A DNA stretch of 64,000 nucleotides from Candidatus Saccharibacteria bacterium RIFCSPHIGHO2_12_FULL_44_22 (GTDB lineage: Bacteria > Patescibacteriota > Saccharimonadia > Saccharimonadales > Saccharimonadaceae): NCBI GenBank assembly GCA_001790515.1, contig MGCS01000010.1, positions 1 to 64,000 of the forward strand. The letters are read 5' to 3'. This document shows, in pieces, positions 36,090 through 61,944 of this stretch; position 1 is the first letter of the stretch; each line of letters starts with the position of its first letter. Below the pieces are notes generated by a model, which searched no databases, was not told where the DNA came from, and saw nothing but the letters and a program-made list of their open reading frames with translations. Made by a program: the position numbers and the translations under genes.

Positions 36090-37451
36090 TTAGCTCTTTC
36101 GGTTGATATATAACATATCAGCATAAGACTGCCACCACTGCCCTGCTGGTGGCGCGCCACTACCGCAGGCACCATCGCTATCTCCTGGGGTCTTGATCCA
36201 TAAGTATGCATCCACTAGCGATTTACCGGTTGCCAGCGTTGGTGCTTCGCCTAGTCCGCGGCCTGCGGGATTACACCACTCATTATTTGTCGATGCTCCA
36301 TTGCCATTGCGACTTGTATCAACGACGAAGTGTTTATCACCTACTTTTGCTGACAATGAATTGCCATATGTTATGCTTTCGCTGGTTGTGCGAAAATTGG
36401 ACACATTCAAGCTAAAGCCATTTGCTTTGGCGATGCCTGCCGATTTCAATCTTGTGGCCATTGTCGCAGTCGATTGCCAATCAGAGTGTCCTGCATCAAT
36501 ATAGACTCGCGACTGGACGGTTTTTACTATACTGACAACCTGTGAGATGGCGTTTATACGCTGATGACGCTCGCTACTACTGAGGCAGTCCATGGCCGCC
36601 AGCGCATCCGGCTCGACAATAATAGTTACGTTTCGGCCGTTGATTCCGTCTGCGACTTGTCGCACCCAGTCAATATACTTGTCATACGTGGTCGCGCCGC
36701 CCGCCGAATAGTTTCCGCAGTCACGTCCGGGGATGTTATACATAACGATTGTCGGCGTTGCATTTGCTGCAGTTGCTCTCGATATATAATTATCCACATC
36801 ACTACTTACGTTAGTATTCCAATCTCCATACCAGTGGGCCGTCGATTGTTTTGCCATATATTGCAATGATTGGTTTTGCGGATTTCGACTCAGTTGTTTT
36901 GCAACTGTACCCTCTGAATCAACATACAATACATCATGGGTGAGTTTTGGAGACACCGGAATGAGTTCAGGCGTACTGGTAGTTTGCGACGGAGGTACTG
37001 TAGCGCTTGTTTGTAGAGGCGGTGTTCCTTTGTTAATGACAAGAGAACTTTCGATCGGACGCCAGCCGTCTTTTAGCAGTGCAATATAACGAATAACATA
37101 TCTGTTATCCTGTTGCCAATTCCAGGTGCTGGTGTCAATTACCGCCATTGACACTCCGGTTGACACACTTGTTGTCATTTTGTTCCATTCGCCATTTCCG
37201 ACAGCCCAGAACATTTCATATGTGTCGGGTAATGCTCCGTCTACTTGTGACGACAATGTAACCAAACCTGTATGATAGCTGTTATCTATTGGTGACGTTG
37301 GTTGTACTGTCGGTAGCGATTGAGCATGCACCTGTTGATGTTTGCTATTAAAGACAAATGCGGCTAACGTAATAGCGACTGCAGCGCAAGCGCTTATGGC
37401 CATTACAAGTACTGTATAGCGGTGGACTTTGTTGAATGAGATTCGTAACAT
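36090..37451 (-). CDS. Secreted glycoside hydrolase family 6 (beta-1,4-glucanase)
   Basis: 453 residues from ATG 37451, preceded by a strong AAGGAGG with 5-nt spacing (a GTG two codons earlier is part of that site). A signal or anchor helix (about 14-36) leads to an extracellular beta-rich domain (about 55-140), a Pro/Thr linker and a GH6 catalytic domain (about 165-453). GH6 motifs: YNIPGRDCGNY, IVEPDALA, YIDAGHSDW, WCNPAGRGLG and LWIKTPGDSDG. GH6 enzymes cut beta-1,4-glucan by inversion. For a host-dependent bacterium this points to attack on cellulose-like or envelope polysaccharide outside the cell. Confidence 0.88.
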   Translation of the reverse strand: MLRISFNKVHRYTVLVMAISACAAVAITLAAFVFNSKHQQVHAQSLPTVQPTSPIDNSYHTGLVTLSSQVDGALPDTYEMFWAVGNGEWNKMTTSVSTGVSMAVIDTSTWNWQQDNRYVIRYIALLKDGWRPIESSLVINKGTPPLQTSATVPPSQTTSTPELIPVSPKLTHDVLYVDSEGTVAKQLSRNPQNQSLQYMAKQSTAHWYGDWNTNVSSDVDNYISRATAANATPTIVMYNIPGRDCGNYSAGGATTYDKYIDWVRQVADGINGRNVTIIVEPDALAAMDCLSSSERHQRINAISQVVSIVKTVQSRVYIDAGHSDWQSTATMATRLKSAGIAKANGFSLNVSNFRTTSESITYGNSLSAKVGDKHFVVDTSRNGNGASTNNEWCNPAGRGLGEAPTLATGKSLVDAYLWIKTPGDSDGACGSGAPPAGQWWQSYADMLYINRKS

Positions 37452-37602
37452 TTTCACCTCCTTATCATTCCACTATGACAAATAACCGAACATCGCGCAA
37501 CATTTTGACATTAATGAAATAACGCTGAATAAAAATGCTTGTGTTTCAAAAAAGGATGGAGTACAATGGCCGTAACATAGCTATAAACAAAAAAGGATTC
37601 AC

Positions 37603-45898: not shown

Positions 45899-47029
45899 TT
45901 ACGCGACGCTATGAAGTCCAGTATGTGGCGGGGTTGGTATCGTTGGACGGGTCACTAACTTTCTGGTAGCGTTATGCGCTCGTAGCCAGCGCAGCTCTGC
46001 GTTTTCATCCGACTTTGACCCACATCCTAAATGGCCAGAAAAAACACCACGGATCTCACGCACAGTTGCGTTCGGGAAATTATTACGTGCGAATTCTGAA
46101 TATGACCAATCTTGATTGAACACATCGTTTGATGCCTCGGTAATTATCATTTTTGTTTCCGGGTCAAGTAGGCTCATTGCATAGGCGATGCCACCTATTA
46201 GTTTTGGGACAACAAGTGCGTGGTTGATTAGTTCATTGCTGGATGTTCTGAATACTTTTGCTCCCTCGATGAAATTACGGGGGTCTTCAAATGCTAGGGC
46301 AATTGTTGGGACTATCTCATGAATCGGTAGCGGAAGTGTTTGTTGTGCCGCATGTTTAAATGAGCGTTTGTCGAACATAGCTGGTCGATTCAGTCGAAGT
46401 CCGTCAACTTCTATGTCGTGCTGAGCTGCTTGCGCGGCGGCGACGGCTGCTTTGGTACCACCCTGCGAATAGCCAGAAAACATAACAGATCGAAGCTGAT
46501 CTAAATCATACGGCCGATCTGCAAATTCTGTCGTTGCTATAACATTGGCTATCGCATTCATGTCATTGCCCAAATCAAAGAATCGCGTGTCTTGGCCTAG
46601 CCTACTCTGGACATGACTGATTGATATCACGCGGTGACCAAGTTTTGCTTCGCGTTCTGCACGCTTATCATACAAATTCCCCGGTGCGCGTTCTGTCAAC
46701 CAACCATGTGTCTGTACATCGTCGGCTGGTTGTCGTAGTCCAGATGCGGCAAAGTCAATCTCTGGCTGGTCAACTGATGTTGTGTAGACATTATATCGAC
46801 GACCACTAGAGATGACATTATATAGCGATGTCTTGCCGATCACCCTCCCTCGGGACGAAAACGGTGAAAACGCTTCTTCTTCACGAACAGCATAACTGCT
46901 GACAGGTTCGAAATCTTCGATGACGCTAGGTGCGTAATCTGTAAACAACTCGTGGGGCTGTTGACTATAATTTTCAGACAAAAAAGACCCACGTTCGTGG
47001 GCTGAAGGATGGCTAATTGCTTGACTCAT
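45899..47029 (-). CDS. Alpha/beta hydrolase-fold protein with GYSQGG nucleophile
   Basis: 376 residues without a signal peptide. The nucleophile elbow MFSGYSQGG (about residue 186), a later VTEASNDVFNQDWS acid region and a FSGHLGCG His region fit an alpha/beta hydrolase. GYSQGG is the elbow seen in PE-PPE and cutinase-like hydrolases, also present in the two secreted proteins at 59233 and 60565. The first 60 residues look unstructured. Substrate unknown. It lies in the cassette-rich region but with less GC-rich codons than its neighbours. Confidence 0.65.
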   Translation of the reverse strand: MSQAISHPSAHERGSFLSENYSQQPHELFTDYAPSVIEDFEPVSSYAVREEEAFSPFSSRGRVIGKTSLYNVISSGRRYNVYTTSVDQPEIDFAASGLRQPADDVQTHGWLTERAPGNLYDKRAEREAKLGHRVISISHVQSRLGQDTRFFDLGNDMNAIANVIATTEFADRPYDLDQLRSVMFSGYSQGGTKAAVAAAQAAQHDIEVDGLRLNRPAMFDKRSFKHAAQQTLPLPIHEIVPTIALAFEDPRNFIEGAKVFRTSSNELINHALVVPKLIGGIAYAMSLLDPETKMIITEASNDVFNQDWSYSEFARNNFPNATVREIRGVFSGHLGCGSKSDENAELRWLRAHNATRKLVTRPTIPTPPHTGLHSVA

Positions 47030-47162: not shown

Positions 47163-47948
47163 TCAGCTGACGAAGTAAATCGCCTTAATACTGTCGAACC
47201 CACTGAAGTCGTATGCAATCACACCAGTGCCGTTTCCGATATTGATGTTCGTGCTCGAAAGATTGAATCGCGAACCTGAAAAGTCAGGTTGTGATTCGTT
47301 CTGAACGACAATGTACGACCAGCTGACAGTCGGTGTTGCCGTGAACATCAGCTCCGAAAAGCCGTTCGCGCCAACAGAGCGTAACCGAGGATTGCCATAC
47401 CCCGCTGGAGGGATGTATGTTGGATCTTGATCTGAGTACACCGGTGTTCCGGCCGCGTCCACGACTGAACCGACATTGTCCTGCGGGATGAGCGCACGAC
47501 GTTCGACGGTTACTGACGGTGCTGGTGTCGATGGCTGAGCAGCTTGCGGCTGCACTTTCGTCGGTGCCAGCACTGGAGCCGGAAGTGAAGTCGTTGGCGG
47601 ATAGGTGTACGTTTCTTGCGGTCGACCATCACTGTGAACAACAACGTATCCGTTTTCGAACGGAACGATCGATATTGTGTCTGGCGCTGCAGATGTCGTC
47701 GATGACGTTGTTGTCGGTACGGTTGTCGACGTCGTTGTCGTTGTGCTGGGTGTCCGTGAGACCGATGTCGTCGGCTTGACGGACGACGACGGCACTGCTG
47801 ATGACGTAGTGAACGACGCATCGCAATCGATGCTTTTGTTGTCGACGTTGCACGACGGTGTGCCGTTGCTGCTGCATCCGGTCAGTATCACAGTGGCTGC
47901 AACAGTTGCGGCAAACGCCACAACTACTTTGTACCATCTATCGTACAT
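47163..47948 (-). CDS. Surface lipoprotein with Ser/Thr-rich stalk
   Basis: 261 residues from ATG 47948 (AAAGGA with 5-nt spacing). Signal peptide with lipobox ILTGC, so the Cys near residue 23 becomes lipidated and the protein stays at the outer membrane face. A Thr/Ser/Pro/Val stalk (about 45-95) and a C-terminal beta-rich domain (about 150-261) follow. Family unknown. The stalk could be glycosylated. Own promoter and downstream hairpin. Confidence 0.75.
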   Translation of the reverse strand: MYDRWYKVVVAFAATVAATVILTGCSSNGTPSCNVDNKSIDCDASFTTSSAVPSSSVKPTTSVSRTPSTTTTTSTTVPTTTSSTTSAAPDTISIVPFENGYVVVHSDGRPQETYTYPPTTSLPAPVLAPTKVQPQAAQPSTPAPSVTVERRALIPQDNVGSVVDAAGTPVYSDQDPTYIPPAGYGNPRLRSVGANGFSELMFTATPTVSWSYIVVQNESQPDFSGSRFNLSSTNINIGNGTGVIAYDFSGFDSIKAIYFVS

Positions 47949-47996
47949 AGGTATCCTTTGAGTGTAGGTACGTGCGCGGGTCTGCGCCACTGGTTT

Positions 47997-57479: not shown

Positions 57480-58421
57480 CTAATAGTTGCAGCTTGCTAA
57501 CTCGTCGTCGTGAGCAAACGCTGCTGCCCTTTGCTCTGGAGTGCCGTGGTTCATGTCGTCTTCTCCGGCGCTTAAATTTGCCATATATTCAGCACCGCGC
57601 GCTGTTTCGGCTGCATCTGAATACCCCATTCGCTCGCTCCAGAGTGCTTGAACACCAGCTGCACAGTCAGATCGCTGTTCGTATGGGAATGGTGAGCTGT
57701 CGCTCATTGGATCACCTGATGTCATCGATTTCAGTAGGGTTGTAGAAACGTTCTCTCCCTCGTTCTCTTGAACGGTATGATTCCATTCATGAGCAACAAG
57801 CCACTTATACTCTTCTGCTTTTGGCGGTTCTTTCATAAGGTCGGGGTTTGTCAAAAAAACTGTATTGTCGCAGGCATGATCGCCGATAATTGGTGCGTAT
57901 CCACAAAAATCAGTTGGATTTTCTGGATTTACCGATACCCCGACTCCTAGTGATGGACTAAGGACGGTTGTTGCGTGTATGTATTCATCGCCCTGCACTT
58001 CTTGGTAAAACTGTTCTGTCTGCCCAACGGCACACTGGATGTCAGCATAGCTAGAGCTATTCGGAGATTCGCAGGCGTCAAGATCGCCTGGGACTACTTC
58101 GGGGACGAATGTATAGACGGTGTTTTCAATGTTGTTTGTTACATCTCCGATGAGCTGTTGCTGTTCGGGTGTCGTCTGTTCAAGACTTGTGTTAATAGCT
58201 GCGGTGAGCTCGGGCGGCAGCATACTTTCTAGTTGCATTGCTGAACCTGGATTCAACTGGTCGATATTCAATTCCTCTGCATTTGCTGAAGCGTGGCTAC
58301 CCAAGAATGCTGCGCTGCCAAATCCAACAAGTACAGCTGCGCGGCCTAATAAGCGACGTACATTGAACGTACTTGATTCTGTTTCAGCTGTGCGACTTTT
58401 CCTAAATTCGAATGATTTCAT
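57480..58421 (-). CDS. Secreted zinc metallopeptidase (YpfJ-like)
   Basis: 313 residues from ATG 58421, 6 nt after a TATACT box. A signal peptide (about 20-42, ending in ASANA) leads to a mature domain with HEWNH (HExxH zinc site) followed by a QRSDCAAGVQALW helix, the pattern of the YpfJ neutral zinc metallopeptidase family (PF04228). Several cysteines suggest disulfides. It probably cuts extracellular or host-surface protein. A longer start (58502) would include the promoter. Confidence 0.8.
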   Translation of the reverse strand: MKSFEFRKSRTAETESSTFNVRRLLGRAAVLVGFGSAAFLGSHASANAEELNIDQLNPGSAMQLESMLPPELTAAINTSLEQTTPEQQQLIGDVTNNIENTVYTFVPEVVPGDLDACESPNSSSYADIQCAVGQTEQFYQEVQGDEYIHATTVLSPSLGVGVSVNPENPTDFCGYAPIIGDHACDNTVFLTNPDLMKEPPKAEEYKWLVAHEWNHTVQENEGENVSTTLLKSMTSGDPMSDSSPFPYEQRSDCAAGVQALWSERMGYSDAAETARGAEYMANLSAGEDDMNHGTPEQRAAAFAHDDELASCNY

Positions 58422-58473
58422 ACTTACAGTATAGCATAAGTACAATAAAATGTCAATACTGTCAACTGCGATA

Positions 58474-59079
58474 CTATCTAGATTGTAATGCGTCAAGGGC
58501 AACGGCCATTGCCGCCCACACCCGCCAATCGGTTGCCTGATATGTTGTATCTTTCATTTCTAATCTGTAATGATCACGGAATACTGTCGTTTTGATATAT
58601 TTGCCTACTTCACCGTTGTCATTGTCCACGAATACAAAGTGATATCGAAAGAAGTTTAGTACAATGTCGAATATGTCACCGATAAACGGTATAAATCCGA
58701 CAAAGCGGCGGAGTACCGCGAGTGTTTTATTGCTTTCTGATACGGTTACAACGACTGAATCATCAGTATTCAGGACATTCCAGGTGCTATTGAGTAGCGA
58801 TGCGCCAAACTGCTTTTTGAATGCGCCTATTAAAGTGTCATTGGCATCTTCGACGAAGTATTTGCCATGAATATCCATGACCTTTTCGGCACGGAATTGA
58901 AATAATTTGGTTGTTTTGAATTCATCACTAAAGAATTCAATCTTTTCTTTGATCGCAAGTCGGCGTTGCTGAGCGAACGCCACCATCTCGGTTTTGTTGC
59001 CATCTGTATCTGTAGCGTAGATTTCGTAACGGTTGACGAATGCGGTAATCTTTTGTTCGACAATAAGGTGTGGGGTCAT
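58474..59079 (-). CDS. LURP-one-like (tubby C-terminal fold) protein
   Basis: 201 residues from ATG 59079. Beta-rich repeats YEIYATDTDGNKTEMVAF and VMDIHGKYFVEDAND followed by LIGAFKKQFG match the LURP-one/DUF567 fold, which is related to phospholipid scramblases. Membrane association is possible (FVGFIPFIGDIFDIVLNFF hydrophobic stretch). Two earlier ATGs (59091 and 59112) exist, but TATGAT sits upstream of 59079. Function unknown. Confidence 0.6.
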   Translation of the reverse strand: MTPHLIVEQKITAFVNRYEIYATDTDGNKTEMVAFAQQRRLAIKEKIEFFSDEFKTTKLFQFRAEKVMDIHGKYFVEDANDTLIGAFKKQFGASLLNSTWNVLNTDDSVVVTVSESNKTLAVLRRFVGFIPFIGDIFDIVLNFFRYHFVFVDNDNGEVGKYIKTTVFRDHYRLEMKDTTYQATDWRVWAAMAVALDALQSR

Positions 59080-59232
59080 AGTATTTATCATATCATGGTG
59101 TAATGAAAGCATATGTGGTATAATCCGTACAATTCAATATACATTCGTATATCCCTTGCCTATTGAATCGCACCTTGTCTGGGGTGTTGATTTGTGCCCT
59201 AGGCGGTTTCTTTAACTAAAAAGAGGTAAAAA

Positions 59233-60366
59233 ATGCTCAAAAATGCTGAAACATTCAGTGAGTCGCGTTTTAATAAAATCAAGACCATATCTGCAATTGC
59301 GGCAATTGCCCTTGTAGGCGTCATGCACGCTGGGTCACCGGCATCTGCCGAAGTAACGATCTATTCCGGTGGGACGTGGGATAAGCATTCCGCTGGCAGC
59401 GCGGGACAAACCGAAGTACCCGATGTTCGCATCGAAAAGCCTGCCGAACCACCTATCATCGGTGCAATGCCGATGCTACAGAGTGTCGATGCTGGATCAA
59501 CGAGTGTGACCGAAGCACTTGACCGAGCACCCGACGATGAATCGATGACTGTGACGGGGTATTCTGCCGGTGCAGTAGAGGTGCGCCATGCACTACAAAC
59601 CAGCAATAGTACTACGGATCGTGTGACAGAAGTAAGATTACCAGGTGATCCATGTGCTCGAAACGGGATACTACGATTAGCTGAGGCGCAAATGCTGACG
59701 GGTACATCGTGTGGAGCAGATATGCAGTTAAATCCTACAGCGACAGTGACGGAATTTGGCTATCAACAGGATCCTATTTTTAATATGCCACACATGCCAG
59801 CGAATTTAGCCCAGGCTGCAAACATGTTGGCTGGCTATTACAACGCAAAGCAAGGTCATGGAAGTTATGATTATCTTGATCCAGACACCGTCGACCCAAG
59901 TCGAAAAACGGTAGTTGTGAACGGAAACGTCCATACGGTGACATTAAAGAACGACACGTCTGCATCGGTGCAATATCTACGAGAACATGGCATATTTCCA
60001 TCTGTCGCGGATGAATCAGCTATCAACGCCATGGTCGGTTTTACAGATGAAGTTGTACCGGTCACTCCCTCGCCATCCGAAGTGCCTGCTGCTGTGACGC
60101 CGGTATCTGCGAACATTGAGCCGTCGCAGGTCGTCGCTCCGGAAGCTCCACAATACCGACCACCAGAGGTTGCAGCGGCGTTGAGTTGGGTTGATATCTC
60201 TGCTAGTTCGGTAGACGTGGCTATCGAATCATATGCCGCCGATGTTGAGCGGGTGGTTCCAGCGGCCGCGCCACAGATCACACAAGTAGCTATTCAGGCA
60301 CATGAAGCAGTGGCTAATGCGCAGCAGCAAGCAAACCAGTTCCTGGCTCAATTTGCGCCACGATAA
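59233..60366 (+). CDS. Secreted PE-PPE-like serine hydrolase
   Basis: 377 residues. Signal peptide (about 17-39, cut near PASAE). The exported body begins with a VTIYSGGTWDKHS oxyanion-like strand, has nucleophile VTGYSAGAV near residue 117 and a NGNVHTVTL stretch, then a Pro/Ala/Val-rich tail (about 275-377) that may be a stalk or wall-spanning region. It resembles the PE-PPE hydrolase domain, best known in mycobacteria. The SD is AAAGAGG with 5 nt to ATG; a TATAAT lies 109 nt upstream. Confidence 0.65.
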   Translation: MLKNAETFSESRFNKIKTISAIAAIALVGVMHAGSPASAEVTIYSGGTWDKHSAGSAGQTEVPDVRIEKPAEPPIIGAMPMLQSVDAGSTSVTEALDRAPDDESMTVTGYSAGAVEVRHALQTSNSTTDRVTEVRLPGDPCARNGILRLAEAQMLTGTSCGADMQLNPTATVTEFGYQQDPIFNMPHMPANLAQAANMLAGYYNAKQGHGSYDYLDPDTVDPSRKTVVVNGNVHTVTLKNDTSASVQYLREHGIFPSVADESAINAMVGFTDEVVPVTPSPSEVPAAVTPVSANIEPSQVVAPEAPQYRPPEVAAALSWVDISASSVDVAIESYAADVERVVPAAAPQITQVAIQAHEAVANAQQQANQFLAQFAPR

Positions 60367-60383
60367 CAGATAAATACAGTTTA

Positions 60384-60413
60384 TGAATACCCTTCAGTAA
60401 TGGAGGGTATTTT
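60384..60413 (+). terminator. Terminator of the 59233 gene
   Basis: ATACCCT and AGGGTAT pair around CTTCAGTAATGG-like loop bases and are followed by TTTTG. Confidence 0.7.
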
Positions 60414-60438
60414 GTAGTATAAATATAACATAAGAGTA

Positions 60439-60467
60439 TTTACAAATAAGCAAAAGTGTGATATAAT
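60439..60467 (+). promoter_or_regulatory. Promoter and structured leader of the 60565 gene
   Basis: TTTACA (60439-60444), 17 bp, TATAAT (60462-60467). The roughly 90-nt leader that follows holds CCGCTC/GAGTGG and GAGGC/GCCTC hairpins before the AAGGTGAG site. Confidence 0.8.
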
Positions 60468-60564
60468 GCAAGTATGTTGAAAGCCGCTCAATGAGTGGTA
60501 CGAAGGCAGTCCGGAGGCACCCGCCTCAGGATAACAACTCAGAATAGAAAGTAAGGTGAGTTCC

Positions 60565-61944
60565 GTGAAGACACGGAGACGAAACTGGCTGCAACGCAGC
60601 ACGATCATCATGGGTATTATTGCCCTATTGATGACGGCACTTCAGCTGTTTGGCGCAAGTACGGCATCCGCCGCAACTCCCGAACAGATGATCATGGGCA
60701 TGTTCAAGTCGGGGGATGCAAGTAGTATCGCTTCGGCACTCATGCCGAAGACAACGCCGGTTGCTTCCGCAGTTGCTGGCGTAACGCCAACACCTGCGGC
60801 ACTTGCTACGCGTGGTCCCACAACGTACTATGTTGCTGGAACCGGTGGAGGCCAAGACAGTCCCGCTGTGCATACGGACAAAGGAACCTACGTAGTTTCT
60901 CCGTACCCGGCTAGTATTTTGCCGGGACCGATCATGGGTCCGTATTCCTACGGGGATTCGGTTCAGATCGGTGCAGCACAAGCGGTCGCCAACTCCAAAG
61001 TAAATCCCCAGCCCGTCAACGAGTTCAATGGCCACAGCCAAGGAGCTTCAGCGGCATGGGAAGCAGCGGCAAAAGATGGACAGGCGTCGCACATTACTGC
61101 AACAGGTACGCCGACCAACCCGGGAACGGGATTTGTGTCGGTTATGCCGAGTAACCTGTTCATCACCGATGTCGGTACGCCATCAGAGTTGGCACCCGAA
61201 GATTCGGCTGATCTCTACAATCTTTCCGGAGATTGCTGGGGAAATATGCCTGATTTCCGCAACGTGCTTTCGCTGATTGCGTGCATTCCGTCGACTATCG
61301 ATACCCATTACAATCAGGGTGAAGGTGGTTACGGCACGTTCAAGGAGGACGAAGTTTACAAGTCCGCCCCGAACATCACGCAACACGTGCAGTATACCGA
61401 GAATGGCCTTGTCCTGATCGGTCAGCAGTTGAATCCCAACCTGCCAGAGGATCAGAAGCAGATGCTTCGAGATCTTGCTCCTCAGGGTCGCCCGGGCGTT
61501 CAGTCCGGACCGACACTTCGTGAACTCACCGACCCAGTCGGTATGGTTCAGGATGCAGTTGAAGGTGCGCTCACACAGGCACCTGCCGCAGTCAACAATG
61601 ATGCATCCGTAGCGCCGGCAAACCCGGTCGCAGCGATTGCAGAAGTTGCCGCTCCTCTGATGGAGCAGTTTGCTGCACAGGCTCCACCCGAGGTTCAGCA
61701 GTTTGTTGCTCCGATCGTGGAGCAGTGGTCGGCTCCCGAGCCTACGTACACAGCGCAGCAGCAGTACTCCGCACCTGCGCCCGTTCAGGACTTCGTTCAG
61801 AATGTCCAGACCCAGGTTCAGGATGTGGTTGCATCGTTCGCGACGCCTGCAGTTGGCAATGTCAATGCAGCTCCCGCTGCACCCGCAATGCCGGCACTTC
61901 CCGACCTCGGCGCACTTGCCGCTTCCTTCATGGGAGGCGTCTAA
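60565..61944 (+). CDS. Secreted PE-PPE-like serine hydrolase with long Pro/Ala/Gln tail
   Basis: 459 residues from GTG 60565 (AAGGTGAG, 6-nt spacing). An earlier GTG at 60556 is weaker. Signal peptide (about 11-36, ending ASTASA). The catalytic body has TTYYVAGTGGGQDSP, nucleophile FNGHSQGAS near residue 162 and an Asp/Thr region after it. The C-terminal third (about 330-459) is Ala/Pro/Gln-rich with no fold seen. Related by layout to the 59233 protein. GC-rich codons and a long leader set it apart. Confidence 0.65.
   Translation: MKTRRRNWLQRSTIIMGIIALLMTALQLFGASTASAATPEQMIMGMFKSGDASSIASALMPKTTPVASAVAGVTPTPAALATRGPTTYYVAGTGGGQDSPAVHTDKGTYVVSPYPASILPGPIMGPYSYGDSVQIGAAQAVANSKVNPQPVNEFNGHSQGASAAWEAAAKDGQASHITATGTPTNPGTGFVSVMPSNLFITDVGTPSELAPEDSADLYNLSGDCWGNMPDFRNVLSLIACIPSTIDTHYNQGEGGYGTFKEDEVYKSAPNITQHVQYTENGLVLIGQQLNPNLPEDQKQMLRDLAPQGRPGVQSGPTLRELTDPVGMVQDAVEGALTQAPAAVNNDASVAPANPVAAIAEVAAPLMEQFAAQAPPEVQQFVAPIVEQWSAPEPTYTAQQQYSAPAPVQDFVQNVQTQVQDVVASFATPAVGNVNAAPAAPAMPALPDLGALAASFMGGV

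What the first reader, a model, noticed from the sequence alone, without database searches (positions are those of the whole stretch)
59233..61944. Tandem secreted PE-PPE-like hydrolases, with a third relative at 45899
Two neighbours have a signal peptide, an alpha/beta-hydrolase elbow (GYSAG, GHSQGA) and long Pro/Ala-rich tails; 45899 has GYSQGG without a signal. The PE-PPE domain is known mainly from mycobacteria. If the organism lives on an actinobacterial host, these could act on host envelope lipids. The two tandem genes differ in leader type and codon use, so one may be a later arrival.
Basis: inference. Interest (0 to 1): 0.6.

Follow-up and report, generated by a model that had tools for sequence, protein, structure and literature searches.

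The report
Parasite enzymes against waxy actinobacterial envelopes
An ultrasmall parasitic bacterium (Saccharibacteria) carries two neighbouring genes for secreted ester-cutting enzymes of a kind otherwise known from mycobacteria, their relatives and their phages, and a few related Saccharibacteria carry expanded sets of them, which suggests that they are used on the waxy envelope of actinobacterial hosts.

Summary
Two exported serine hydrolases lie in tandem at 59233-60366 and 60556-61944 of a Saccharibacteria genome. The core of the first passes Pfam PE-PPE (31.2 bits, cut-off 21). The second does not, but a profile built without either window protein finds both (3.7e-18 and 7e-13). Both carry Ser, Asp and His at the family's conserved triad positions, a cleavable leader (59233 Sec-like; 60556 twin-arginine-like, and the genome has TatC) and Ala/Val/Pro/Gln-rich tails. 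The "third relative" at 45899 is a different hydrolase family. Members occur in 8 of 295 genomes of the order, often several per genome, near atp-uvrD-rlmD-glgB-gnd. The only annotated homologues found outside are PE-PPE proteins of Mycobacteriales and hydrolases of Mycobacterium phages; the nearest solved structures are Rv3802c-type enzymes and Lysin B. One carrier fits Ca. Mycosynbacter amalyticus, a parasite of Gordonia. The "later arrival" idea is not supported: the genes belong to two deep clades, and the promoter-leader of 60556 is conserved in another genus although the proteins are almost unrecognisable. Best reading: exported esterases aimed at host mycolata envelope lipids. Activity, substrate and host are untested; structure prediction failed.

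The parts
59233..60366 (+). Secreted PE-PPE domain serine hydrolase (377 aa): leader 1-39, core about 46-233, Ala/Val/Pro tail
   Evidence: PF08237 31.2 bits on the core; leave-out family profile 3.7e-18; ORF
59563..59859 (+). Proposed triad of 59233: S111 (codon 59563), D180 (59770), H209 (59857)
   Evidence: alignment of 39 relatives and alignment with phage hydrolases, HGSYD against HGHYD; positions
60556..61944 (+). Exported PE-PPE-like serine hydrolase (462 aa; likely start 60565) with twin-arginine-like leader, core about 84-281, Ala/Val/Pro/Gln tail
   Evidence: leave-out profile 7e-13; no PF08237 or other Pfam hit; TatC in genome
61036..61308 (+). Proposed triad of 60556: S161 (codon 61036), D226 (61231), H251 (61306)
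   Evidence: alignment; positions
60437..60555 (+). Promoter (TTTACA-17-TATAAT) and structured 5' leader of 60556, conserved in G081 upstream of its PE-PPE gene and found once per genome
58474..59112 (-). LURP-one-like protein, divergent neighbour, at the same place in G081
   Evidence: weak PF04525 match, below cut-off; synteny
57480..58502 (-). Secreted HExxH (HEWNH) putative zinc metallopeptidase, at the same place in G081
   Evidence: NF050010 E 1.2e-4, far below its cut-off; synteny; sequences
45899..47029 (-). NOT a PE-PPE relative: separate alpha/beta-hydrolase-like family (S188, D302, H333 invariant in 4 genomes), no signal peptide
   Evidence: 8.7 bits, E 0.05; alignment; no solved relative found

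Best explanation
59233 and 60556 encode exported Ser-Asp-His esterases of the PE-PPE / cutinase-like branch of alpha/beta hydrolases. The Saccharibacterium, an expected epibiont of Actinobacteria, sends 59233 out by Sec and 60556 probably by Tat. Their proline-punctuated tails probably hold or present the enzyme at the cell surface. There they cleave (or transfer) acyl esters of a mycolata-type host envelope, such as trehalose mycolates or mycolyl-arabinogalactan, opening the outer layer for attachment, feeding or lysis. Shown by sequence: family, triad residues, leaders, tails, synteny, restricted distribution. Inferred: enzyme activity, substrate, surface retention and host.
For: PF08237 and leave-out profile matches. 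Ser invariant, Asp and His nearly invariant over 39 sequences including Mycobacteriales and phage proteins. A Saccharibacteria-only profile's best solved relatives are 5w95 and 3aja, with phage Gene 12 protein 3hc7 also hit; 5w95 as M. tuberculosis Rv3802c, 3aja as its M. smegmatis counterpart and 3hc7 as phage D29 Lysin B are identified from memory. Only Mycobacteriales records match two relatives among 72,556 plasmids, and only Mycobacterium phages match a mycobacterial member among 50,697 phages. DUF4185, whose D-arabinan substrate is a mycolata wall polymer, occurs in 3 of 10 carriers and 0 of 20 non-carriers (enzyme in PMC10115798). G035, with four members, fits Ca. Mycosynbacter amalyticus: 1,081,308 bp single contig against a reported 1.08 Mbp and one DUF4185 protein with a lipobox, as reported for that organism. 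The M. tuberculosis PE16 PE-PPE domain is an esterase inactivated by Ser199Ala (PMC3562317).
Against: No enzyme activity, substrate or host is shown for any Saccharibacterial member. AlphaFold models were unusable. The window genome has no DUF4185 and no cutinase match, so its own host class is not independently indicated. The tested M. tuberculosis PE-PPE domain prefers C4-C8 esters and shows no C14-C16 activity, so mycolate cleavage does not follow from the family. DUF4185 co-occurrence is only 2 of 5 against 0 of 14 genera.
Confidence: 0.6

Rival explanations
1. General nutrient esterases: secreted lipases that release fatty acids from any lipid around the cell for uptake, without host-envelope specificity.
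For: Many secreted alpha/beta hydrolases are scavengers; the tested M. tuberculosis PE-PPE domain acts on short to medium esters; the profile also reaches fungal acetylxylan esterases and cutinases.
Against: All annotated homologues found are in Mycobacteriales or their phages; patchy distribution, 4 of 143 genera in the order sample.
Confidence: 0.2
2. Acyltransferases rather than hydrolases: the enzymes move host mycolyl or acyl groups onto other glycolipids or onto the parasite's own surface, as PE-PPE proteins Rv3822 and Rv1184c do in sulfolipid and polyacyltrehalose synthesis (from memory, not tested).
For: Same domain, triad and exported location; the family includes transesterases (from memory).
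Against: No direct evidence in any CPR member; the only activity read here for the domain is hydrolysis.
Confidence: 0.12
3. Surface or adhesion proteins in which the hydrolase core is mainly a binding scaffold, the tails being the functional part.
For: Shared tail module in several genera (14 motifs in family tails, 0 in other ORFs); cores extremely diverged.
Against: Triad positions retained despite about 20% core identity.
Confidence: 0.06

Closest known systems
PE-PPE domain (PF08237) proteins, e.g. M. tuberculosis PE16 (Rv1430) and exported hypothetical proteins such as Rv1184c
   Same: GxSxG elbow, Ser/Asp/His order and surrounding motifs, secretion; 59233 core above the Pfam cut-off
   Different: No PE or PPE N-terminal domain; Ala/Val/Pro tails; 60556 outside PF08237 and in a Saccharibacteria-only clade; this phylum is not named in the papers found
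Mycobacteriophage PE-PPE hydrolases (phages Nibb, Nergal, LeMond and others)
   Same: Secreted PE-PPE core in agents that exploit mycobacteria
   Different: About 25-30% identity; the phages listed show one such gene each, not an expanded chromosomal set
Rv3802c / MSMEG_6394 cutinase-like enzymes (5w95, 3aja) and Lysin B (3hc7)
   Same: Best solved relatives of the Saccharibacteria-only profile; enzymes of the mycolata envelope
   Different: Distant, superfamily level; the window genome has no PF01083 match
DUF4185 (GH183) endo-D-arabinanase of Ca. Mycosynbacter amalyticus
   Same: Surface wall-degrading enzyme of a Saccharibacterial parasite of mycolata
   Different: Glycosidase, unrelated family; absent from this genome

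Membership tests
PE-PPE domain (PF08237), 59233 | Pfam model above gathering score (21 bits) | tested here: met
   59233 core 31.2 bits, E 1.9e-7; 30.6 bits in genome search
PE-PPE domain (PF08237), 60556 | Pfam model above gathering score | tested here: not met
   Only 59233 matched in the genome; none. 60556 is placed by the leave-out family profile only (7e-13)
PE-PPE domain (PF08237) | GxSxG/S pentapeptide and conserved Ser, Asp, His | tested here: met
   S111/D180/H209 and S161/D226/H251; definition from PMC3037379. Sequence alignment only
PE-PPE domain (PF08237) | Serine alpha/beta-hydrolase fold | tested here: inconclusive
   AlphaFold pLDDT 31.5 and 36.1, no fold; profile match to solved alpha/beta hydrolases
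PE-PPE domain (PF08237) | Esterase activity lost on change of the Ser | not testable with these tools
   Shown for Rv1430 (PMC3562317), not here
PE-PPE domain (PF08237), 45899 | Match to the family profile beyond the elbow | tested here: not met
   8.7 bits, E 0.05, residues 159-210 only
Cutinase (PF01083) | Pfam model above gathering score | tested here: not met
   No match in the window genome
Lysin B mycolylarabinogalactan esterase | Cleaves mycolate from arabinogalactan | not testable with these tools
   Only distant profile similarity to 3hc7

The most novel reading that the evidence does not exclude
A fast-diversifying repertoire of envelope hydrolases, kept in a conserved chromosomal neighbourhood (uvrD to gnd) and partly behind a conserved promoter-leader, sets the mycolata host range of this Saccharibacteria branch; coding sequences are replaced or driven beyond recognition while flanking genes stay 65-87% identical.
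Probability: 0.25. Interest if true: 0.8.

Novelty: new variant of a known kind. Interest (0 to 1): 0.6.

Why it matters
How Saccharibacteria get through the mycolic-acid layer of hosts such as Gordonia is open; mycolic-acid mutants of Gordonia amarae are reported resistant to Mycosynbacter (Rose et al. 2025, known here only from the reference list of PMC12592800). This family gives named, testable candidate enzymes, found in four copies in the probable Mycosynbacter genome, and a possible marker for predicting which uncultured Saccharibacteria live on mycolata. No paper in the searched library pairs PE-PPE with Saccharibacteria or Patescibacteria, but the main Mycosynbacter papers were not held, so priority is unknown.

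Tried and rejected
45899 as a PE-PPE paralogue: rejected. Recent transfer of 60556: not supported. Known riboswitch in the 60556 leader: no Rfam match, though it folds better than shuffles (z -2.55). AlphaFold with the only alignments allowed (two window and four phage sequences): no usable model, so no fold search was run. Direct BLAST of the window proteins in phages and plasmids: nothing significant; the only hit is a Tsukamurella PE-PPE protein at E 0.4. Direct search in viral contigs: nothing. Contamination as the source of the genes: rejected, they sit in Saccharibacterial synteny. Weak family hits of 20-30 bits in many genomes: those looked at are cutinase + von Willebrand A proteins, not this family.

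Full report
WHAT IS THERE. Two + strand genes, 59233-60366 (377 aa) and 60556-61944 (462 aa), encode exported proteins. The 59233 leader is Sec-like (MLKNAETFSESRFNKIKTISAIAAIALVGVMHAGSPASA|E). The 60556 leader contains KTRRRNWLQRS before its hydrophobic stretch, and the genome encodes TatC, so Tat export is plausible; the likely start is 60565, behind AAGGTGAG (inference). Each core is followed by an Ala/Val/Pro/Gln-rich tail.

FAMILY. The whole-genome search gives one PF08237 match, in 59233, at 30.6 bits with cut-off 21. hmmscan of the full-length protein missed it but finds the core at 31.2 bits. 60556 is outside PF08237. Relatives were gathered from genomes of the same family. A profile built from them without the window proteins scores 59233 at 61.6 bits (3.7e-18), 60556 at 44.3 bits (7e-13) and 45899 at 8.7 bits (0.05); 400 shuffled copies of the two proteins reach at most 6.9. 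The relatives were first collected with an alignment that included the window proteins, so some circularity remains in the choice of set. In an alignment of 39 cores, three from Mycobacteriales plasmids and two from mycobacteriophages, the elbow Ser is invariant and one Asp and one His nearly so; 29 of 39 match PF08237 at E below 0.01. In 59233 the His sits four columns off in that alignment, but pairs cleanly with the phage motif (HGSYDYLDP against HGHYDEADLDP). Proposed triads: S111/D180/H209 and S161/D226/H251.

NOT A THIRD COPY. 45899 has counterparts at the same place (between uvrD and the 47972 gene) in G081, G035 and G102 with invariant Ser, Asp and His (S188, D302, H333). It is a separate hydrolase-like family without signal peptide and with no solved relative found.

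ACTINOBACTERIAL LINK. Relatives L029 and L050 match annotated PE-PPE proteins of Mycobacterium riyadhense (3e-17), Tsukamurella and Mycolicibacterium and nothing else among 72,556 plasmids. The riyadhense protein matches 24 phage records, all Mycobacterium phages. A Saccharibacteria-only profile's best solved matches are 5w95 and 3aja, with 3hc7 (a phage Gene 12 protein) also hit; their identities as Rv3802c, its M. smegmatis counterpart and Lysin B are from memory, except that the PE-PPE paper used 3AJA as template. In the tree the actinobacterial and phage proteins form a supported group (99/99) that contains genes of one Saccharibacterial genus, g25, which suggests transfer there. 59233 lies outside that group but in the same half of the tree; 60556 lies in the other half, a Saccharibacteria-only clade (97/90), on a long branch whose place is unsure.

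DISTRIBUTION AND PLACE. The window genome is Saccharibacteria (atpD 81-92% to named Saccharibacteria) and has two members. In an order-wide sample 8 of 295 genomes and 4 of 143 genera have members at E 1e-8, with 2-5 copies each. Copies lie within about 30 kb of atpD in eight genomes, often between rlmD and glgB or near gnd. In G081 the metallopeptidase-like gene, the LURP-one-like gene and a PE-PPE gene follow gnd as in the window.

FAST CHANGE. Between window and G081, global identity is 65-87% for UvrD, RlmD, GlgB, Gnd and AtpD but 24-31% for the metallopeptidase-like, LURP-like and PE-PPE genes, against 20-25% for shuffles. Yet the promoter and 5' leader of 60556 are 90-96% identical, in two blocks, upstream of the G081 PE-PPE gene; the leader element occurs once in each of these two genomes and in none of 26 others. 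So the regulatory region is older than the split while the coding region diverged or was swapped; the data do not decide which. This argues against 60556 being a recent arrival, as does its native fourfold-site GC, although a swapped coding sequence behind an old leader is not excluded.

HOST INFERENCE. DUF4185 endo-D-arabinanase cuts arabinogalactan and lipoarabinomannan and was discussed as a tool of Ca. Mycosynbacter amalyticus, parasite of Gordonia (PMC10115798). It occurs in 3 of 10 PE-PPE carriers and 0 of 20 non-carriers searched, but not in the window genome; genera are not independent, so this is suggestive only. G035, with four PE-PPE members, is a single contig of 1,081,308 bp (reported Mycosynbacter size 1.08 Mbp, PMC12592800) with one DUF4185 protein with a lipobox, as reported. 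I infer that G035 is that organism; its name was not visible.

MECHANISM. Shown: family, triad residues, export signals, tails, synteny, restricted distribution. Inferred: surface-held esterases that cut (or transfer) acyl esters of the host envelope. A PE-PPE domain from M. tuberculosis is an esterase with C4-C8 preference that needs its Ser (PMC3562317), so activity on mycolates must be tested, not assumed.

VERDICT.

Noticed in passing
60437-60555: Promoter and structured leader (z -2.55, no Rfam match) with AGGATAACAACTCnGAATAGAAAGTnAG, one copy per genome in G000 and G081, conserved above a nearly unrecognisable coding sequence.
   Followed up: partly
57480-61944: Block of exported or surface-type genes with 24-31% identity to G081 counterparts while flanking genes are 65-87% identical: a divergence hot spot.
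   Followed up: partly
Tails of 59233, 60556 and relatives in L021, L023, L051, L052, L053, L149: Shared tail module with AP(I/V)(V/L)EQ(F/W/V)-type repeats (14 motifs in family tails, 0 in 86,233 aa of other ORFs); several tails end in a hydrophobic stretch plus Lys/Arg (NQFLAQFAPR, NSPLGQFLPR, FLGGLFAPKR): possible surface-sorting signal. The motif was chosen after looking.
   Followed up: partly
36090-37457: Glycoside hydrolase family 6 (PF01341, E 1e-60) in a Saccharibacterium; substrate unclear.
   Followed up: no
47163-47990: Lipoprotein-like protein with a long Ser/Thr linker, counterpart in G081 at 28% identity.
   Followed up: no
G000 contig 15, 46352-47662: A second F-type ATPase beta-like gene (40% to atpD), also seen in G035, G102 and G081.
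   Followed up: no
L005, L007, L008, L009: Separate secreted cutinase-like + von Willebrand A proteins in other Saccharibacteria.
   Followed up: no
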